A DNA stretch of 64,000 bases. It comes from Agathobacter ruminis (GTDB lineage Bacteria; Bacillota; Clostridia; Lachnospirales; Lachnospiraceae). Where the stretch lies: assembly GCF_002735305.1 (NCBI RefSeq), contig NZ_PDYG01000123.1:1-64000 (forward strand), written 5' to 3'. The notes under the pieces are model-generated. The model saw only the letters and a list, made by a program, of their open reading frames with translations. It was not told the DNA's origin and ran no database searches. Of this stretch, positions 18,531 through 24,838 are shown in pieces. The position numbers and the translations under genes are program-made. The stretch's first letter is position 1, and each line of letters begins with the position of its first letter.

Positions 18531-19718
18531 ATGGCAAAGGAACATTTTGACAGAACCAAACCACATTGTAACATCGGAACCATCGGTCACGTAGATCATG
18601 GTAAAACAACTTTAACTGCAGCAATCACTAAGGTTTTAGCTGAGCGCGTAGCAGGAAATGCAAAGGTAGATTTCGAGAACATCGATAAGGCTCCGGAAGA
18701 GAGAGAGCGTGGTATTACCATTTCTACCGCACACGTTGAGTATCAGACAGAGAAGAGACATTATGCACATGTTGACTGCCCGGGACATGCTGACTACGTT
18801 AAGAACATGATCACCGGTGCTGCTCAGATGGACGGCGCTATCCTTGTAGTTGCTGCTACTGACGGTGTTATGGCTCAGACAAAGGAGCACATCCTTCTTT
18901 CTCGTCAGGTAGGTGTACCTTACATCGTTGTTTTCTTAAACAAGTGCGATATGGTAGACGACGAAGAACTTATCGAGCTCGTAGAGATGGAAGTTACCGA
19001 GCAGCTTGAAGAGTACGGATTCAATGATTGCCCAATCATCAAGGGATCTGCTCTTAAGGCTCTTGAAGATCCAAACGGCGAGTGGGGCGACAAGATCATG
19101 GAACTCATGGCAACTGTTGATGAGTACATCCCAGATCCAGAGCGTGACACTGATAAGCCATTCCTTATGCCTGTAGAGGACGTATTCACCATTACCGGTC
19201 GTGGTACTGTAGCTACCGGTCGTGTAGAGCGTGGTACATTACACCTCAACGAAGAACTTGAAATCGTTGGTGTTAAGGAAGAGACTCAGAAGACCGTTGT
19301 AACCGGAATCGAGATGTTCCGTAAGATGTTAGACGAGGCTCAGGCTGGTGATAACATCGGTGCTCTTCTTCGTGGTATCAACCGTGACCAGATCGTTCGT
19401 GGACAGTGTCTCTGCAAGCCAGGTACTGTTACCTGCCACAGCAAGTTCACCGCTCAGGTTTACGTATTGACCAAGGATGAAGGTGGTCGTCATACTCCAT
19501 TCTTCAATAACTATCGTCCACAGTTCTACTTCAGAACTACTGACGTTACCGGTGTTTGCAACCTTCCAGAAGGAACCGAAATGTGCATGCCTGGTGATAA
19601 CATCGAAATGACTATCGAATTGATTCACCCAGTAGCTATGGAGCAGGGTCTTACTTTCGCTATCCGTGAGGGTGGTAGAACAGTAGGTTCAGGCCGTGTT
19701 GCTACTATCATCGAGTAA
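18531..19718 (+). CDS. tuf: elongation factor Tu
   Basis: A 395-residue GTPase that brings aminoacyl-tRNA to the ribosome. G1 (GHVDHGKTT), G2 (RGITIS), G3 (DCPGHADY), G4 (NKCD) and G5 (GSALKAL) motifs are present, with domains II and III complete (ends GRVATIIE). It is transcribed from its own promoter and closed by a strong terminator, apart from fusA. Start ATG follows TAAGGAGG. Confidence 0.98.
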
Positions 19719-19750
19719 TCTTATTCGTAAAGTAAATAAGCCAAATATAT

Positions 19751-19791
19751 TAAAGCCTTTCAGGGAATATCCTGAAAGGCTTTAATTTTTT
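19751..19791 (+). terminator. terminator after tuf
   Basis: Perfect 14-pair stem TAAAGCCTTTCAGG / CCTGAAAGGCTTTA, then ATTTTTT. Confidence 0.94.
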
Positions 19792-19797
19792 GTTTAG

Positions 19798-19950
19798 AAA
19801 TTATATGTATTAAATCAGCAAATCTATGATTCAATCATAGCAATCAAAGACGGAACGATTGTGGAAAAAGGGTCATATAATGATTTGATTGAAACAAAGT
19901 GGTATGTGTGGGCGTTAACAAATATAGAGTTAAATATTACGCAAGCATAG
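19798..19950 (+). pseudogene. 3' remnant of an ABC exporter ATPase gene
   Basis: Frame 19798-19950 ends in TAG and reads, in its middle, DSIIAIKDGTIVEKGSYNDL. This is the C-terminal end of an ABC exporter nucleotide-binding domain (the strand pair and G-x-H/Y-x-x-L segment after the D- and H-loops). No start, Walker A or signature motif exists upstream, because the tuf terminator lies there. It is a broken 3' end left by deletion or insertion of the island next to it. The frame upstream of 19816 does not look like the family. 19951-20050 is A+T-rich with no gene seen. Confidence 0.65.
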
Positions 19951-20050
19951 AATATTGCCGTGATTTTCGCGAAGATATTCTAAAAGAAAATATATAAACA
20001 AAAATTATATTATGTATGAGCATAAAATATGATGAATAATAATATATAGA

Positions 20051-20079
20051 TTGACATATAATTGACGGATATGTAGTAT
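20051..20079 (+). promoter_or_regulatory. probable promoter of the secreted-protein/ABC island
   Basis: TTGACA (20051-20056), 17-base spacer, TAGTAT (20074-20079). ATTGAC occurs twice, at 20050 and 20061, exactly one helical turn apart, which could be a tandem activator site. The -10 is weak by itself. Confidence 0.55.
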
Positions 20080-20110
20080 AAATATAAAAAGAAATATCGG
20101 GAGGGTAAAA

Positions 20111-20518
20111 ATGAAAAGACGATTATTAAAAAGAACTTTAGGTCTAGGATTGTTATTGGCAATGAGTGTTGTAACAATATATGCAGCAGATAATTATAAA
20201 GGCTATTGGGGATATTCTTTGCCTCCGCGTAGAGGAAATAATTATACAACTCAACATGAAAAGCAGTATAATGATAATTATATTAACAATAAAGTGGTTT
20301 CATTGAAAAATACCAGTACAGTTACTTTTTGGGCTGCAGATTCAGATAAAGATCAAATATCGAATGACTATGATCAGAAGGCTGGTAGTACAGCAAAGAT
20401 TAAGTTCACGGAAAAGGGATTTAATAAAGCGGGGAAAGAAGTAATGCTTGGAATGGAAAATGCTAGTTGGTATTGGCGAGAATATGCATTCGCTGATGGA
20501 AAAGTAGATTTCAGATAG
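20111..20518 (+). CDS. small secreted protein, DUF2712/bacteriocin-like
   Basis: A 135-residue protein with a clear Sec signal peptide: basic start KRRLLKR, hydrophobic core, probable cleavage after ...IYA-A (about residue 25). The mature part, about 110 residues, is rich in Tyr, Trp, Asn and Gly, has no cysteine and contains the conserved-looking STVTFWAADSD and ENASWYWREY segments. It resembles small exported proteins of the DUF2712 group that occur beside ABC transporter genes; I make this link from memory and it needs a profile search. It opens an operon of three membrane proteins, an ATPase and an anchored protein. It could be a toxin or bacteriocin, a signal, or a substrate of the transporter. 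Start ATG 20111 follows GGGAGGG. Base composition is A+T-rich. Confidence 0.65.
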   Translation: MKRRLLKRTLGLGLLLAMSVVTIYAADNYKGYWGYSLPPRRGNNYTTQHEKQYNDNYINNKVVSLKNTSTVTFWAADSDKDQISNDYDQKAGSTAKIKFTEKGFNKAGKEVMLGMENASWYWREYAFADGKVDFR

Positions 20519-20524
20519 TTATTT

Positions 20525-20555
20525 AGGCAATCAGGTTTCTCTGATTGCCTTCTTT
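20525..20555 (+). terminator. intercistronic terminator/attenuator
   Basis: Stem AGGCAATCAG / CTGATTGCCT followed by TCTTT, between the secreted-protein gene and the transporter genes. It would let the secreted protein be made in excess over the transporter. Confidence 0.75.
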
Positions 20556-20572
20556 AATATTAAGGAGATGAA

Positions 20573-21397
20573 ATGAGAGTATTAAAAGTTCAAATGAAGG
20601 AATGTTTGAACCAAATTGAATTTAAAGTATGTTTTGCATTTTGGTGTTTGATTAGTTTTGGCGGGATTGTAATCAGTTGTATGAAATACTATGATTGCAA
20701 TTATTTAAATATCAGAAGTGCAGCAGATAGTTTTTTGCTGGTATCACCAAATGCGAGTGCAGTCGCGCAGATTTTTACTTTGACATTCCCGTTGATTGCG
20801 GCCGTTATGTGTGCCGGAACCAGAAGGAATGGAGAGAAATCGGGGGGGGGATTGTTTTCGATGACGCGAATGAGTCGCAAACAATATGTTTTTGGAAATG
20901 CTTTGGTTACGGTATTATTAACCGGGGCGAGCATATTATTTACCCTTTTGGTGAATCAGCTACTATGTCTTGTTGTATTTCCGGTGGAAGGATATAGTAA
21001 TCGTTTTGGTGTGGCTGAATATCTGGCGCCATTAAATTATGATTCAAACGCATTATTGGATTTTTGGCAGGTTCAAAATCCATATTTATATAATCTGATA
21101 TATATGGTGCTGATATCAGTGCTTGGAGCCGGAATAGGATTCGTTTGCTATGCTGTTCAATTGCAGAAAATCTTCCAACGATATCGAACATTATATATTT
21201 CGATAGGTATCTTTTTGTTATTTATCGGACTATCGATTATGGGGCAGATTTTAGACATGCCACTGCTCTCTTTTTTGTCATATGTGGAAGTTGGTCATTA
21301 TGTACGAATTTCAGATTATATTCTTTTTGTGATATTGATTTATGGTGCAGGAACCATTCTAACAATCAGAGGTGCATATCAATATGAGTATATTTAA
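20573..21397 (+). CDS. ABC-2-like membrane protein with G9 tract
   Basis: A 274-residue protein with about six membrane spans (around 20-40, 65-83, 107-130, 175-200, 210-235 and 245-265). It looks like a permease subunit of a BcrA/lantibiotic-immunity type exporter but I cannot name a family. A run of nine G (20842-20850) encodes the Gly-Gly-Gly in a cytoplasmic loop at about residues 90-93; gain or loss of one G would shift the frame and stop translation soon after. At the present length the gene is intact. Start ATG follows TAAGGAG. The end overlaps the next gene by 14 bases. Confidence 0.7.
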   Translation: MRVLKVQMKECLNQIEFKVCFAFWCLISFGGIVISCMKYYDCNYLNIRSAADSFLLVSPNASAVAQIFTLTFPLIAAVMCAGTRRNGEKSGGGLFSMTRMSRKQYVFGNALVTVLLTGASILFTLLVNQLLCLVVFPVEGYSNRFGVAEYLAPLNYDSNALLDFWQVQNPYLYNLIYMVLISVLGAGIGFVCYAVQLQKIFQRYRTLYISIGIFLLFIGLSIMGQILDMPLLSFLSYVEVGHYVRISDYILFVILIYGAGTILTIRGAYQYEYI

Positions 21398-22076
21398 ACG
21401 AATATCATTATTTTGGTATGTGACGGCAGGATTAGAAGTGTTTTTGTGCGCCTTGACATGGCGACAAATGAATCGCGATCCTATGCTGTATCTGTTTGCA
21501 CTATTTCAGGATATGTTGAATGAAATTACATTATTAGCCGTTGCGATACCAATTTTTGCTGGAATTATATTAAAAGAAACAGCGCTCAGTAATTTATGGA
21601 TTTTACGATTGGGCGGACGCGGGGCATGGAAGCGTCGGATAGAAAAAAGAATCCTGATAATTAGTGGAATCTATACCATACTATTATTGTTACCATTAAG
21701 TATCGTTTGGCTGATATTCGGATACAGAGTCGATCTGGCTATGAATCTTACATATTTCGGACTGAGTCTGATGGGATACTTTTTTTCATTTAATATCATT
21801 GCGTTTGTGATTGGCATCATCAAGCTGAAATGGAATAAAGATGTATTGGCTTTTCTTGTGGTCTATGCACTATGTTTTATGCCATTCGTAGTAACTAAAA
21901 TATTGGGATTTGTACCGATTGACTATTCGTCCATCGTTAATTCGTCGTTGTTGATTCATGCGAATGGATATCAATGGGTACAACATGCTATAATCTGCGG
22001 TTGGATGGCAATCGTGGCATCTCTTTGTCAGTGGGTTATTACTGTACAATCGAATCGCAAGGACATTATGATGTGA
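21384..22076 (+). CDS. multi-spanning membrane protein of the ABC system
   Basis: A 230-residue protein with about six hydrophobic segments. The ATG at 21384 is chosen because AGAGGTG lies 9 bases upstream; an in-frame GTG at 21372 would use that very site. It overlaps the stop of the upstream gene by 14 bases, so the two are translationally coupled. No family recognised; composition and context suggest a second permease-type subunit. Confidence 0.7.
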   Translation: MSIFKRISLFWYVTAGLEVFLCALTWRQMNRDPMLYLFALFQDMLNEITLLAVAIPIFAGIILKETALSNLWILRLGGRGAWKRRIEKRILIISGIYTILLLLPLSIVWLIFGYRVDLAMNLTYFGLSLMGYFFSFNIIAFVIGIIKLKWNKDVLAFLVVYALCFMPFVVTKILGFVPIDYSSIVNSSLLIHANGYQWVQHAIICGWMAIVASLCQWVITVQSNRKDIMM

Positions 22077-22083
22077 GGGAAAA

Positions 22084-22782
22084 ATGAAAATAAACGCGTA
22101 TCATATGAAATGCATTTTGATGTTCGCACTGCTGCAACTGTTCTTTTCTGCGTATTATGGATATCTGAATGTAGGTGGTTTTTGGTGGAATCATAGAGAA
22201 GCAATCACTTTTTGGGGCGGAATTACAATAGAGGACAGTACAGATTTATTGTATGTTATTCTATATTTTATACCTCAATTCCTCCTAATTACATTTGTAA
22301 TCAATGATTATATAAAGGAAATGAAAAGCAATTTTATTTTCATCTTTCTTAGAACACCCAACCGAATGCATTGGCTGTATCAAATGCATATGAAACTGAT
22401 TTTCAGTATCGTGTTATTTGAATTGATATGGCATATAATACCGTGGTGTTACGGATATTATGAAGGGATTTGGAATGAAACAGCGTATTTATTACTGCTT
22501 GCGTCAGTATCAAATCTATTATATTTTTTCCTGCCGGATTCGGTGAGTGTATTGGGGACAATATTGGCTATCATAACACCTGTTTTCTTGATTGGAGTGA
22601 TATATGAAAATCGTGGACCATGGCAGGTGTTGATTGATCGACTGCCATGCTATTGGGGCAACTGGAATTATTTCCGACACAGTGAGATGACAATGGGATT
22701 TGCATTATGCGCAATGCTATTATTGTATGTCGTTGTTTTTTTTGTTCAAATGTGGAAATTTAAGAAGTACGAATTTGTATAA
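22084..22782 (+). CDS. third multi-spanning membrane protein of the ABC system
   Basis: A 232-residue protein with about six membrane segments and many Trp and Tyr residues in the outer loops (NVGGFWWNHREA; CYGYYEGIWNE; YWGNWNYF). It starts 8 bases after the upstream stop behind GAGGG. No family recognised. Similar size and layout to the other two membrane proteins suggests a permease with three different subunits. Confidence 0.7.
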   Translation: MKINAYHMKCILMFALLQLFFSAYYGYLNVGGFWWNHREAITFWGGITIEDSTDLLYVILYFIPQFLLITFVINDYIKEMKSNFIFIFLRTPNRMHWLYQMHMKLIFSIVLFELIWHIIPWCYGYYEGIWNETAYLLLLASVSNLLYFFLPDSVSVLGTILAIITPVFLIGVIYENRGPWQVLIDRLPCYWGNWNYFRHSEMTMGFALCAMLLLYVVVFFVQMWKFKKYEFV

Positions 22783-22804
22783 GACAAGAATTTGGAGAGT
22801 ATAG

Positions 22805-23452
22805 ATGAATATCATTGTGAAGAATATAGACAAAAATATAAAAGGAAATCAGGTCTTGGATAACATTTCTATTGAGATGTGTGCCGGAAATATTTATGGA
22901 ATATACGGTCGGAATGGTTCCGGAAAAACAATGCTGATGAGAGCTCTTTTGGGATTAATTCATGTAGATTCCGGAGAAATTATGATAGATGGGCAGAAGA
23001 TAGGACAGGATATTGATTTTCCTGAAAATGTAGGAGCAATCATTGAAAATCCTGGATTTTTCACACATGCAACGGGATATGAGAATCTTAGATTGCTAGC
23101 AGATATTCGAAAAAAAATATGTGATGACGAGATACGAAACGCAATGCAAATGGTTGGGTTAAATGATCGTGATAAAAGAACTGTTTCAAAATATTCGCTT
23201 GGAATGAAGCAGAAACTGGCAATCGCGCAGGCAATTATGGAAAAGCCGGATCTTTTGGTTTTGGATGAGCCGACAAATGCATTGGATGAGGAAAGTGTTA
23301 ATCAATTCCGGGATATCATCAAAGAATTTGCAAAACGCGGGACATTGGTTATATTGGCAAGCCATAATAGGGATGATATAGAGACTTTATCTGATGTACA
23401 AATCAAAATGGAAGCCGGAAAAATAGTCGATGTTCAGTCAAAAGAGGGGTAA
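22805..23452 (+). CDS. ABC transporter ATP-binding protein, BcrA/lantibiotic-immunity type
   Basis: A 215-residue ATPase with Walker A GRNGSGKT (35-42), signature YSLGMKQ (130-136), Walker B LLVLDEPTN (150-158) and switch His (about 186). The usual Q-loop glutamine is replaced by Glu in GAIIENPGFF (78-87), as in the bacitracin/lantibiotic export family (BcrA, NisF-like). That family moves hydrophobic peptides away from the membrane and gives self-protection. It lies 22 bases after the three membrane genes and 5 before the anchored protein, so all form one system. Confidence 0.9.
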   Translation: MNIIVKNIDKNIKGNQVLDNISIEMCAGNIYGIYGRNGSGKTMLMRALLGLIHVDSGEIMIDGQKIGQDIDFPENVGAIIENPGFFTHATGYENLRLLADIRKKICDDEIRNAMQMVGLNDRDKRTVSKYSLGMKQKLAIAQAIMEKPDLLVLDEPTNALDEESVNQFRDIIKEFAKRGTLVILASHNRDDIETLSDVQIKMEAGKIVDVQSKEG

Positions 23453-23457
23453 ATGAT

Positions 23458-24153
23458 ATGACAGCAACAACAAAAAAATTTTTTATTGGATGTTTGTTTG
23501 CCCTGGTATTGATGTTTGGTGTTGCAATCGTTACGCGTACAAGCTATTATGGCGCGACAACATTGGATCAGCTGTCAGAAAGCGGAGAATTGGATGATTA
23601 TTTGCTGGAACAATATGATGATGCGCCGGACGAGAACAGTATATCCATTCATAACATGGATGACTTAAAAGCGGCAACTGACTGTATCGTAAAAGTTAAA
23701 GTGACAAATGACAGACAACTGCGAGCCAATTCTATACTCACAAAGGTGCAGGTAGAAGCAGTATTACAGACCTCTGACGACATCTCTGCAGGAGAGGAAA
23801 TCTTTATCTATGAACCGGCATCGTTTAATCAGGATTTTCAGATTTATGAAGAAAAAGTAGGTTATCAACTGATGAAAGTTGGGGAAGAGTATATCGTCTT
23901 TTTGAATCATCTGAAAGTAATTGATGGATATCAAATGAGTCAAAAGGAAAAGCGGACATATTATCCAAGCACATCATTATATTCGACATACAGATTGTCC
24001 GAGTTAAACGCGGATGTCCTGGATTCGGAAAGAGTCTATGGTGATGGAGAGCGTTATGCGTACAGAGAAATAAAGGATATGGATTTGCTTACCATTCATC
24101 AGGAGGAGCTAGACCTCTATAGGACGCTGAGAGAACAAGTATTAAAATGGTAG
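23458..24153 (+). CDS. membrane-anchored extracytoplasmic protein of unknown function
   Basis: A 231-residue protein with an uncleaved N-terminal anchor (about 8-26) and an outside part. Residues about 70-160 alternate hydrophobic and polar residues in beta-strand fashion (CIVKVKVTND ... VQVEAVLQT ... EEIFIYEP ... EEYIVFLN), like the small beta-barrels of many exported Firmicute proteins. It has no lipobox. As last gene of the island it may be an immunity or accessory subunit. Function unknown. Confidence 0.65.
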   Translation: MTATTKKFFIGCLFALVLMFGVAIVTRTSYYGATTLDQLSESGELDDYLLEQYDDAPDENSISIHNMDDLKAATDCIVKVKVTNDRQLRANSILTKVQVEAVLQTSDDISAGEEIFIYEPASFNQDFQIYEEKVGYQLMKVGEEYIVFLNHLKVIDGYQMSQKEKRTYYPSTSLYSTYRLSELNADVLDSERVYGDGERYAYREIKDMDLLTIHQEELDLYRTLREQVLKW

Positions 24154-24235: not shown

Positions 24236-24562
24236 ATGGAACTTTCAAGCTTAAATAAAGAATACAAGCTGGTACGCCAGGATAGCATGGACAAATTTAT
24301 CAAATTAAGTCATGTAAATCCAAAGATTGTTTTAGTTGAGGAATATTGGATTACCTCTGATCAGACAATGGGCAACAGATGCGCTTATTTTGAGTCATAC
24401 ACACAAGCAGAAGAATATGCATATTTGCTGGCTGCGAACCGCTCGGCATTGAATCAGAACCATGAGAAGCCGTTCTGCATTTTTATCAATGGAAAAGAAA
24501 CCAAAGTAGATGGTAATCTGCAACAATTTCTGGCAGGTGAATTTCAACTGAAGCAGGGCTAG
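24236..24562 (+). CDS. hypothetical protein, 108 residues
   Basis: A small soluble protein without cysteine motif, membrane segment or family I know. Start ATG 24236 follows AACGAGGTGAA, a good ribosome site, and a plausible promoter (TTGGCA 24164, TAGAAT 24188, spacer 18) lies upstream. An inverted repeat TGGCA-GTTT-TGCCA sits in that promoter at 24165-24178. It is not clearly part of the ABC island. Confidence 0.6.
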   Translation: MELSSLNKEYKLVRQDSMDKFIKLSHVNPKIVLVEEYWITSDQTMGNRCAYFESYTQAEEYAYLLAANRSALNQNHEKPFCIFINGKETKVDGNLQQFLAGEFQLKQG

Positions 24563-24621: not shown

Positions 24622-24627
24622 CAAGTC

Positions 24628-24838
24628 GTGCGTCGATAAGGAATAGTATACGGTGGAAAGCCTGCAGAGAGAAGTCGGATGGTGTGAGACTTTGGTGAGT
24701 AAAGCGTAGAACCGGCCTTGGAGCTATACAATTCTATAAATGAGAGCAGGTAATACCTGAATTTAGGTGGTAACGCGGATTTGATTCGTCCTAAAATACA
24801 TCAGATGTGTTTTTCGGATGAATGGAATCCGCTTTTTT
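24628..24838 (+). promoter_or_regulatory. T-box riboswitch, proline type
   Basis: The stem I region contains GAACCGGCC, with CCG (24712-24714) at the place where the specifier codon lies (GAA-NNN-...-GGAGC); CCG is a proline codon and the next gene is proS. The T-box sequence AGGTGGTAACGCGG (24765-24778) pairs with uncharged tRNA. The terminator arm GCGGAT ... ATCCGC plus TTTTTT ends at 24838. Uncharged tRNA-Pro should switch it on. Confidence 0.92.

What the first reader, a model, noticed from the sequence alone, without database searches (positions are those of the whole stretch)
19798..24153. Candidate undescribed system: small secreted protein plus three-subunit BcrA-type ABC exporter and anchored protein
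An A+T-rich island inserted between tuf and proS encodes a Sec-exported about 110-residue Trp/Tyr-rich protein (DUF2712-like), three different membrane proteins, a BcrA/immunity type ATPase and a membrane-anchored extracytoplasmic protein, in one direction with couplings. The layout fits production of a bacteriocin-like protein with a dedicated self-protection exporter, or a signalling system. No modification enzyme is present, so an unmodified product is predicted.
Basis: partly seen in the sequence, partly recalled or inferred. Interest (0 to 1): 0.7.

Follow-up and report, generated by a model that had tools for sequence, protein, structure and literature searches.

The report
Conserved secreted-protein and ABC exporter operon
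A six-gene cassette found scattered through Clostridia and Bacilli makes a small secreted protein together with its own pump and a membrane-tethered protein, and is probably an undescribed bacterial competition system, though no activity has been shown.

Summary
At 20111-24153 six genes run in one direction with tight couplings: a 135-aa protein with an export signal, three membrane proteins, a LanF/BcrA-like ATPase and a membrane-anchored protein. The order recurs: 12 other loci keep it from the secreted to the anchored protein, 11 with three permeases, one with two. In 398 genomes, nine secreted-protein hits were credible: eight beside PermA, one at a contig end. Four loci lost or broke the secreted gene; in two of these the exporter and anchored protein stay open, the usual trace of toxin lost and immunity kept. 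In 12 of 14 spacers after the secreted gene a strong stem-loop folds. Models suggest a jelly-roll (secreted) and an NTR/TIMP-like OB fold (anchored). The secreted protein matches no Pfam or NCBIfam family convincingly; DUF2712 and lactococcin 972 were tested and not met. Yet a DUF2712 locus carries a homologous exporter and one permease matches DUF2705. The apparent counterpart in Bacillus subtilis, the yybN operon, has no known function. I favour an antibacterial protein with dedicated self-protection (0.45).

The parts
19749..19786 (+). terminator of tuf, left edge of the island
   Evidence: terminator scan, 17-pair stem then T run
19810..19947 (+). remnant of the C-terminal end of another ABC exporter, not part of the operon
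   Evidence: sub-threshold NCBIfam hits (HepA 17.3 bits, bacteriocin_ABC 17.0 bits) to the last 32 or so residues of ABC exporters
20051..20079 (+). candidate sigma-A promoter TTGACA-17-TAGTAT
   Evidence: consensus scan, 10 of 12; 24 promoter-like sites in the region against 23.1 in shuffles, so weak
20111..20518 (+). Sec: small exported protein, 135 aa, mature about 109 aa, modelled as a jelly-roll
   Evidence: ORF; relatives; AlphaFold2 mean pLDDT 77.7 on 5 sequences; fold matches
20525..20550 (+). stem-loop between Sec and PermA, terminator-like
   Evidence: terminator scan; z -3.76, 0 of 200 shuffles as stable; stem-loops of other sequence in 11 of 13 other spacers
20573..21397 (+). PermA, membrane protein with six hydrophobic segments
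   Evidence: ORF; profile hits in relatives; hydropathy
21384..22076 (+). PermB, membrane protein with six hydrophobic segments, start overlaps PermA
   Evidence: ORF; profile hits in part of the relatives, others by position; hydropathy
22084..22782 (+). PermC, membrane protein; the Paenibacillus herberti counterpart matches DUF2705
   Evidence: ORF; profile hits; DUF2705 24.6 bits, cut-off 22.4, in L058; the window's own PermC has no Pfam hit
22805..23452 (+). ATPase of LanF/BcrA type
   Evidence: PF00005 113.3 bits; TIGR03740 176.7 bits; pairwise identity 43% or more among 12 operons
23458..24153 (+). Anch: N-terminal membrane helix plus a domain modelled as an NTR/TIMP-like OB fold
   Evidence: ORF; profile hits; AlphaFold2 mean pLDDT 74.5 on 10 sequences; agrin NtA Z 8.1, complement C345C, N-TIMP
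24236..24562 (+). 108-aa ORF, unknown; membership in the system not shown
   Evidence: found in 1 of 60 genomes of the genus, the window's own; no Pfam or NCBIfam family
24624..24796 (+). T-box leader before proS, right border, not part of the system
   Evidence: Rfam RF00230, 98.1 bits

Best explanation
The operon makes an unmodified, Sec-secreted, probably antibacterial protein and its own protection. Shown: a conserved operon; an N-terminal export-type segment; in the sample, the secreted gene beside the exporter wherever the contig allowed a look; loss or breakage of the secreted gene in four loci, in two of them with exporter and anchored protein still open. Inferred: the mature protein leaves through SecYEG, is made in excess because the stem-loop thins transcription into the following genes, and acts on the envelope of competing Gram-positive cells. 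The three-permease ABC-2 exporter does not carry it out but removes it, or its target complex, from the producer's membrane, as LanFEG does for lantibiotics. The tethered NTR/TIMP-like domain binds the protein outside and holds it off or hands it to the exporter.
For: Order Sec-PermA-PermB-PermC-ATPase-Anch in 11 other loci plus one two-permease locus. Of 11 Sec hits in 398 genomes two were judged false; of the other nine, eight adjoin PermA (one as a remnant left by an insertion) and one is at a contig end. Sec absent or broken with the rest kept: L043 (same upstream DNA as L042, 6 mismatches in 339 columns, then PermA directly) and L039 (remnant of the last 37 profile positions); also the decaying L038 and L065. 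Spacer stem-loop in 12 of 14, z -2.9 to -8.4 (L035 and L037 are close relatives). ATPase nearest to a lantibiotic-protection ATPase model. NTR/TIMP-like matches of the anchored protein. Among 12 loci Sec divergence tracks Anch (rho 0.40, 8 of 999 permutations) and PermA (0.34, 24 of 999) but not the ATPase (0.06, 313 of 999). The B. subtilis yybN operon stands in a ten-line table of Rok targets with sdpA, sunA, sboA and yydH, and also with genes such as comK and rok itself (passage); that these four make antimicrobials is my knowledge, apart from subtilosin export by Alb named. Regulators near some copies: two-component system just before L063; ECF sigma factors one or two genes away in L034 and L036; AgrB about 4 kb away in L044.
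Against: No activity shown anywhere. In L038 and L065 permeases are broken as well, so decay without selection explains those; the two open cases are few, and in L039 the last residues of Anch are changed. Whether G822 (L043) has Sec elsewhere was not tested. Between L035 and L037 Sec is the most conserved protein (97.9%, Anch 88.5%), not fast-evolving as many toxins are. Fold matches of Sec (best Z 8.6) lie about where the tool says a common arrangement can score, shared with lectins, CBMs and GOLD domains. The ATPase does not co-vary with Sec.
Confidence: 0.45

Rival explanations
1. The secreted protein is a lectin-like, adhesive or structural surface protein; the exporter and anchored protein help its release, folding or assembly.
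For: Fold matches include carbohydrate-binding modules, TNF-like lectins and Ena2A fibre subunits; Sec strongly conserved between two close relatives; C-terminal end -(D/N)(F/L/Y)(R/K) in 11 of 12 loci, Arg in 10.
Against: Exporter open without a whole secreted gene in L043 and L039; ATPase resembles a protection ATPase; an export-type N-terminus makes a second route unnecessary (inference).
Confidence: 0.2
2. An extracellular signalling protein sensed through the anchored protein and exporter.
For: Regulators near several copies: AgrB about 4 kb from L044, an HTH_3 regulator before L042 with a like ORF before L043, a histidine kinase before L063.
Against: No recognised regulator beside the window copy; regulator kinds differ between loci; no processing enzyme in the operon.
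Confidence: 0.12
3. An envelope-stress or antibiotic-protection exporter; the secreted and anchored proteins are accessory capture proteins for a foreign antimicrobial.
For: Related exporters occur without a recognised Sec: L043, L039, diverged copies L045-L047 (L046 and L047 cut by contig ends), and one in the window's own genome, L123.
Against: No credible Sec shown away from the exporter in the sample; stem-loop after Sec suggests much product (inference).
Confidence: 0.15

Closest known systems
DUF2712/DUF2705 operons; B. subtilis yybN-yybM-yybL-yybK-yybJ (function unknown)
   Same: L053 has a DUF2712 gene and one further gene before a related exporter (ATPase 270.7 bits, PermA 109.4 bits, PermC 12.6 bits); PermC of L058 matches DUF2705. 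Of 14 control genomes DUF2712 rings in B. subtilis only, DUF2705 in B. subtilis and Bacteroides ihuae (one of the two over the cut-off). YybJ-YybK-YybL is listed as an ABC exporter of unknown function; the yybN operon is A+T-rich, thought horizontally acquired and of unknown function.
   Different: Secreted protein not DUF2712 by search; an NTR-like anchored protein here, a DUF4352-like one in L053 (23.8 bits, cut-off 25.9). That YybN is DUF2712 and YybM a membrane protein is recalled, not tested.
LanFEG lantibiotic immunity exporters (NisFEG, EpiFEG)
   Same: ATPase closest to TIGR03740; structural gene, stem-loop, then exporter genes (the lantibiotic layout is recalled).
   Different: Three permeases, not two; no modification enzyme; product of about 109 aa; score under the family cut-off.
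Lactococcin 972 operons
   Same: Small secreted protein with ABC genes (that it is unmodified and beta-rich is recalled).
   Different: A membrane protein of 763 or 728 aa and an ATPase that looks of another type follow it in L119 and L120; no profile similarity.
NTR/TIMP-like OB-fold proteins (agrin NtA, complement C345C, TIMP)
   Same: Predicted fold of the anchored protein; top 50 rows Z 6.6-8.1.
   Different: No credible sequence match to solved chains; bacterial, membrane-anchored, function unknown.

Membership tests
DUF2712 (PF10916) | match to the Pfam model | tested here: not met
   not among the hits of the window protein or of 10 members at E up to 1
DUF2712 (PF10916) | profile similarity to members | tested here: not met
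   hhalign probability 1.0% against a two-sequence DUF2712 alignment; a thin profile, so distant kinship is not excluded
DUF2712/DUF2705 type operon | related three-permease exporter next to a small secreted protein | tested here: met
   L053 (PermB by position, PermC 12.6 bits); DUF2705 hit of PermC in L058; only one DUF2712 locus could be read
Lactococcin 972 (PF09683) | match to the family | tested here: not met
   not among the Pfam hits; hhalign probability 2.3% to two members
Lactococcin 972 (PF09683) | large membrane protein plus ATPase downstream | tested here: not met
   three small permeases here; 763- and 728-aa proteins in L119 and L120
LanFEG lantibiotic immunity | ATPase over the TIGR03740 cut-off | tested here: not met
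   176.7 bits, cut-off 309.75
LanFEG lantibiotic immunity | LanE/LanG permeases | tested here: inconclusive
   no NCBIfam hit for the window's three permeases (E up to 1) or 10 permeases of relatives (E up to 0.1); that the library holds LanE and LanG models is recalled
NTR/TIMP-like fold | OB-fold barrel with terminal helix | tested here: inconclusive
   best Z 8.1, rows consistently NTR-type, but mean pLDDT 74.5 and Z near the tool's background
Unmodified Sec-dependent bacteriocin | export signal and no modification enzyme in the operon | tested here: met
   N-terminal hydrophobic segment; none of the six genes is such an enzyme. The signal peptide was judged by eye.
Unmodified Sec-dependent bacteriocin | kills other bacteria | not testable with these tools
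   needs an assay

The most novel reading that the evidence does not exclude
A new class of folded, unmodified antibacterial jelly-roll proteins whose producers protect themselves by a tethered TIMP-like binding protein that captures the protein outside and a three-subunit ABC-2 exporter that clears it from the membrane, with the secreted and tethered parts exchangeable around one exporter type (including the uncharacterised yybN operon of B. subtilis).
Probability: 0.3. Interest if true: 0.75.

Novelty: new variant of a known kind. Interest (0 to 1): 0.55.

Why it matters
It defines a conserved operon in Clostridia and Bacilli with two protein families (the secreted and the anchored protein) that the libraries searched do not name (Pfam and NCBIfam for the secreted protein; for the anchored one Pfam, and NCBIfam for the window copy only). 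It links the operon to the long-uncharacterised yybN operon of a model organism, and so makes the question of what such operons do testable in Bacillus subtilis. If antibacterial, it would be a protein-type competition system without modification enzymes, which genome mining based on known families would miss.

Tried and rejected
Family searches of the secreted and anchored proteins gave only hits of unrelated families below their cut-offs, or weak ones; I do not use them, including Inhibitor_I36 (11.6 bits). PHROGs and PADLOC were not searched. Sequence search against solved structures gave nothing credible. Plasmid searches (Sec, PermA, Anch, and the DUF2712 protein of L053) and a phage search (Sec) found no match; a viral-contig scan with the anchored protein found no relative. 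DUF2712 was found in none of 210 genomes of the class of G751 and in 1 of 10 of the class of G586 (the same locus), so its gene order could be read at one locus only.

Rows dropped: of the Sec hits, G112 (no operon in L007), and G550 and G751, as false. Of the 15 Anch hits, ten are strong (E under 1e-30); the five weak ones (E 3.1e-5 to 7.2e-4) were left out; four of them were read and show no such operon (G769; G529, G640, G744), G656 was not read. Of the seven Anch genomes four are strong; G837, G007 and G823 are weak, and the layouts read for them differ. Lactococcin 972 is not in the 50 fold rows shown for Sec in either list; that says nothing either way.

The idea that all Sec-less loci show selection for immunity was cut back: L038 and L065 have broken permeases too. 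Whether G822 (L043) carries Sec elsewhere in its genome was not tested. A second copy of the tuf 3' end was looked for in the window and not found.
Full report
What is there. The six ORFs stand as described in a stretch of 34-38% GC. PermA and PermB overlap; the later genes lie 7, 22 and 5 bases apart. A 54-base spacer with a terminator-like stem-loop parts the secreted gene from PermA. To the left lie the tuf terminator and a 46-codon remnant of an ABC exporter; to the right a 108-aa ORF of unknown kind (in 1 of 60 genomes of the genus, the window's own) and the T-box before proS.

Conservation. The secreted protein alone found 4 of 391 genomes of the class, the window's own included. Two others carry the whole operon in the same order: G069 (L005) and G161 (L006). 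A profile of the anchored protein found 15 of 398 genomes of the phylum, ten strongly, and 7 of 60 of the genus, four strongly, the window's own included in each; a scan of named genomes gave nine loci. Besides the window, Sec through Anch in order occur in L005, L006, L034, L035, L036, L037, L040, L042, L058 (Paenibacillus herberti, Bacilli), L059 (uncultured Bacilli bacterium by its title) and L061 (Clostridium sp. DSM 8431), and with two permeases in L044. PermB of L034 and the second permease of L044 were placed by position, having no profile hit. L032, L033/L057, L060, L062, L064, L107 and L108 are cut by contig ends.

The secreted protein goes with the exporter. Its profile hit 11 of 398 genomes. 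G550 and G751 were judged false. Of the nine left, eight lie next to PermA, one of them as a remnant; the ninth (G511) ends about 260 bases before a contig end, while the same genome has PermA to Anch near the end of another contig. Most of these loci had built the profile, so the independent finds are G463 and G511.

Loss of the secreted gene. L043 and L042 share the upstream DNA (6 mismatches in 339 columns), but in L043 PermA follows at once; its permeases, ATPase and anchored protein are open and 92.7-100% identical to those of L042. In L039 only the last 37 profile positions of the secreted gene remain, beyond which transposase-like genes lie; the permeases, ATPase and anchored protein are open, the last residues of the latter changed. 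In L038 and in Thermoanaerobacter thermocopriae (L065) the secreted gene is lost and permeases are broken, while ATPase and anchored protein stay open. Toxin-first loss is the simplest reading for the first two; plain decay for the others.

Stem-loops. Of 14 spacers between the secreted gene and PermA, 12 fold better than shuffles (z -2.9 to -8.4; at most 2 of 200 shuffles as stable); L034 and L036 do not (z 0.53 and -0.68). Sequences differ except between the close relatives L035 and L037.

Folds. The secreted protein is modelled as a beta sandwich (mean pLDDT 77.7; ten-residue blocks from residue 31 on at 81-94 but for one at 70). Foldseek's first rows are Ena2A fibres and PirA; VIA's best are PirA, a GOLD domain and a SEC14-like protein (Z 8.6 each), then carbohydrate-binding modules and TNF-like lectins. 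This is about the tool's stated background, so I take the fold and not a function. The anchored protein (mean pLDDT 74.5) has a membrane helix and a domain whose matches are consistently NTR-type: agrin NtA Z 8.1, complement C345C, N-TIMP. The models rest on thin alignments (5 and 10 rows).

Relations. The secreted protein matches neither DUF2712 nor lactococcin 972. But in L053 a DUF2712 gene and one further gene precede PermA, PermB, PermC and the ATPase (109.4 bits, no hit, 12.6 and 270.7 bits), followed by a DUF4352-like anchored protein. PermC of L058 matches DUF2705 (24.6 bits, cut-off 22.4). Of 14 control genomes DUF2712 rings in B. subtilis only, DUF2705 in B. subtilis and Bacteroides ihuae, over the cut-off in one of the two. 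In B. subtilis YybJ-YybK-YybL is listed as an ABC exporter of unknown function (passages of PMC11466899); the yybN operon is A+T-rich, thought horizontally acquired, regulated by Rok, and of unknown function (passages of PMC2978689 and PMC11841835). That YybN is DUF2712 is my recollection. In the open-licence library searched no paper holds DUF2712, DUF2705 or PF10916, and none holds netrin-like domain, bacteriocin and ABC transporter together; subscription papers are mostly not in it.

Mechanism. I commit to an antibacterial protein with self-protection (0.45). Shown: operon, export-type N-terminus, linkage in the sample, loss pattern, stem-loop. Inferred: killing, capture by the tethered domain, clearance by the exporter. 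Sec divergence among 12 loci tracks that of Anch and PermA but not of the ATPase, which suits contact with the outer parts; it is weak evidence.

Novelty. A new variant: the exporter type exists in a DUF2712 operon, but the secreted and anchored families and their combination are unnamed in the libraries searched.

Noticed in passing
window 19665-19718 (tuf 3' end); L085, L089, L091, L095, L104, L106, L125; G012, G016, G822, G823, G836, G838, G840: In this genus about the last 54 bases of tuf recur as a second copy on the same strand 1-21 kb downstream in seven genomes, and integrase-like genes lie within 1.5 kb after tuf in six loci, in four of them with an excisionase-like ORF (by eye); L125 has an integrase-like and a relaxase-like gene (by eye). 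The tuf 3' end looks like an attachment site for integrative elements; no paper in the library holds tuf gene, integrase, attachment site and genomic island together. No second copy is in the window.
   Followed up: partly
window 19810-19947: Remnant of the C-terminal end of an ABC exporter in the same spot as the island, perhaps an older insertion.
   Followed up: no
L123 5372-8170 (own genome, C10): A second related exporter (ATPase 299.5 bits, PermA 44.9 bits) with no recognised secreted or anchored partner beside it.
   Followed up: no
L052 8267-8695 (own genome, C8): A DUF2712 protein near a contig end; what follows it is unknown.
   Followed up: no
L045, L046, L047 (G834): One genome of the genus has several diverged copies with the anchored protein at another place in the order and no recognised secreted protein; L046 and L047 are cut by contig ends.
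   Followed up: partly
L048, L114: Another layout: small exported-looking proteins, a 436-aa protein, a 679-aa membrane protein, an ATPase and a weakly similar anchored protein (35-42 bits).
   Followed up: no
secreted proteins of 12 loci: They end in -(D/N)(F/L/Y)(R/K) at the very C-terminus in 11 of 12 loci, which suggests that a free end is needed.
   Followed up: no
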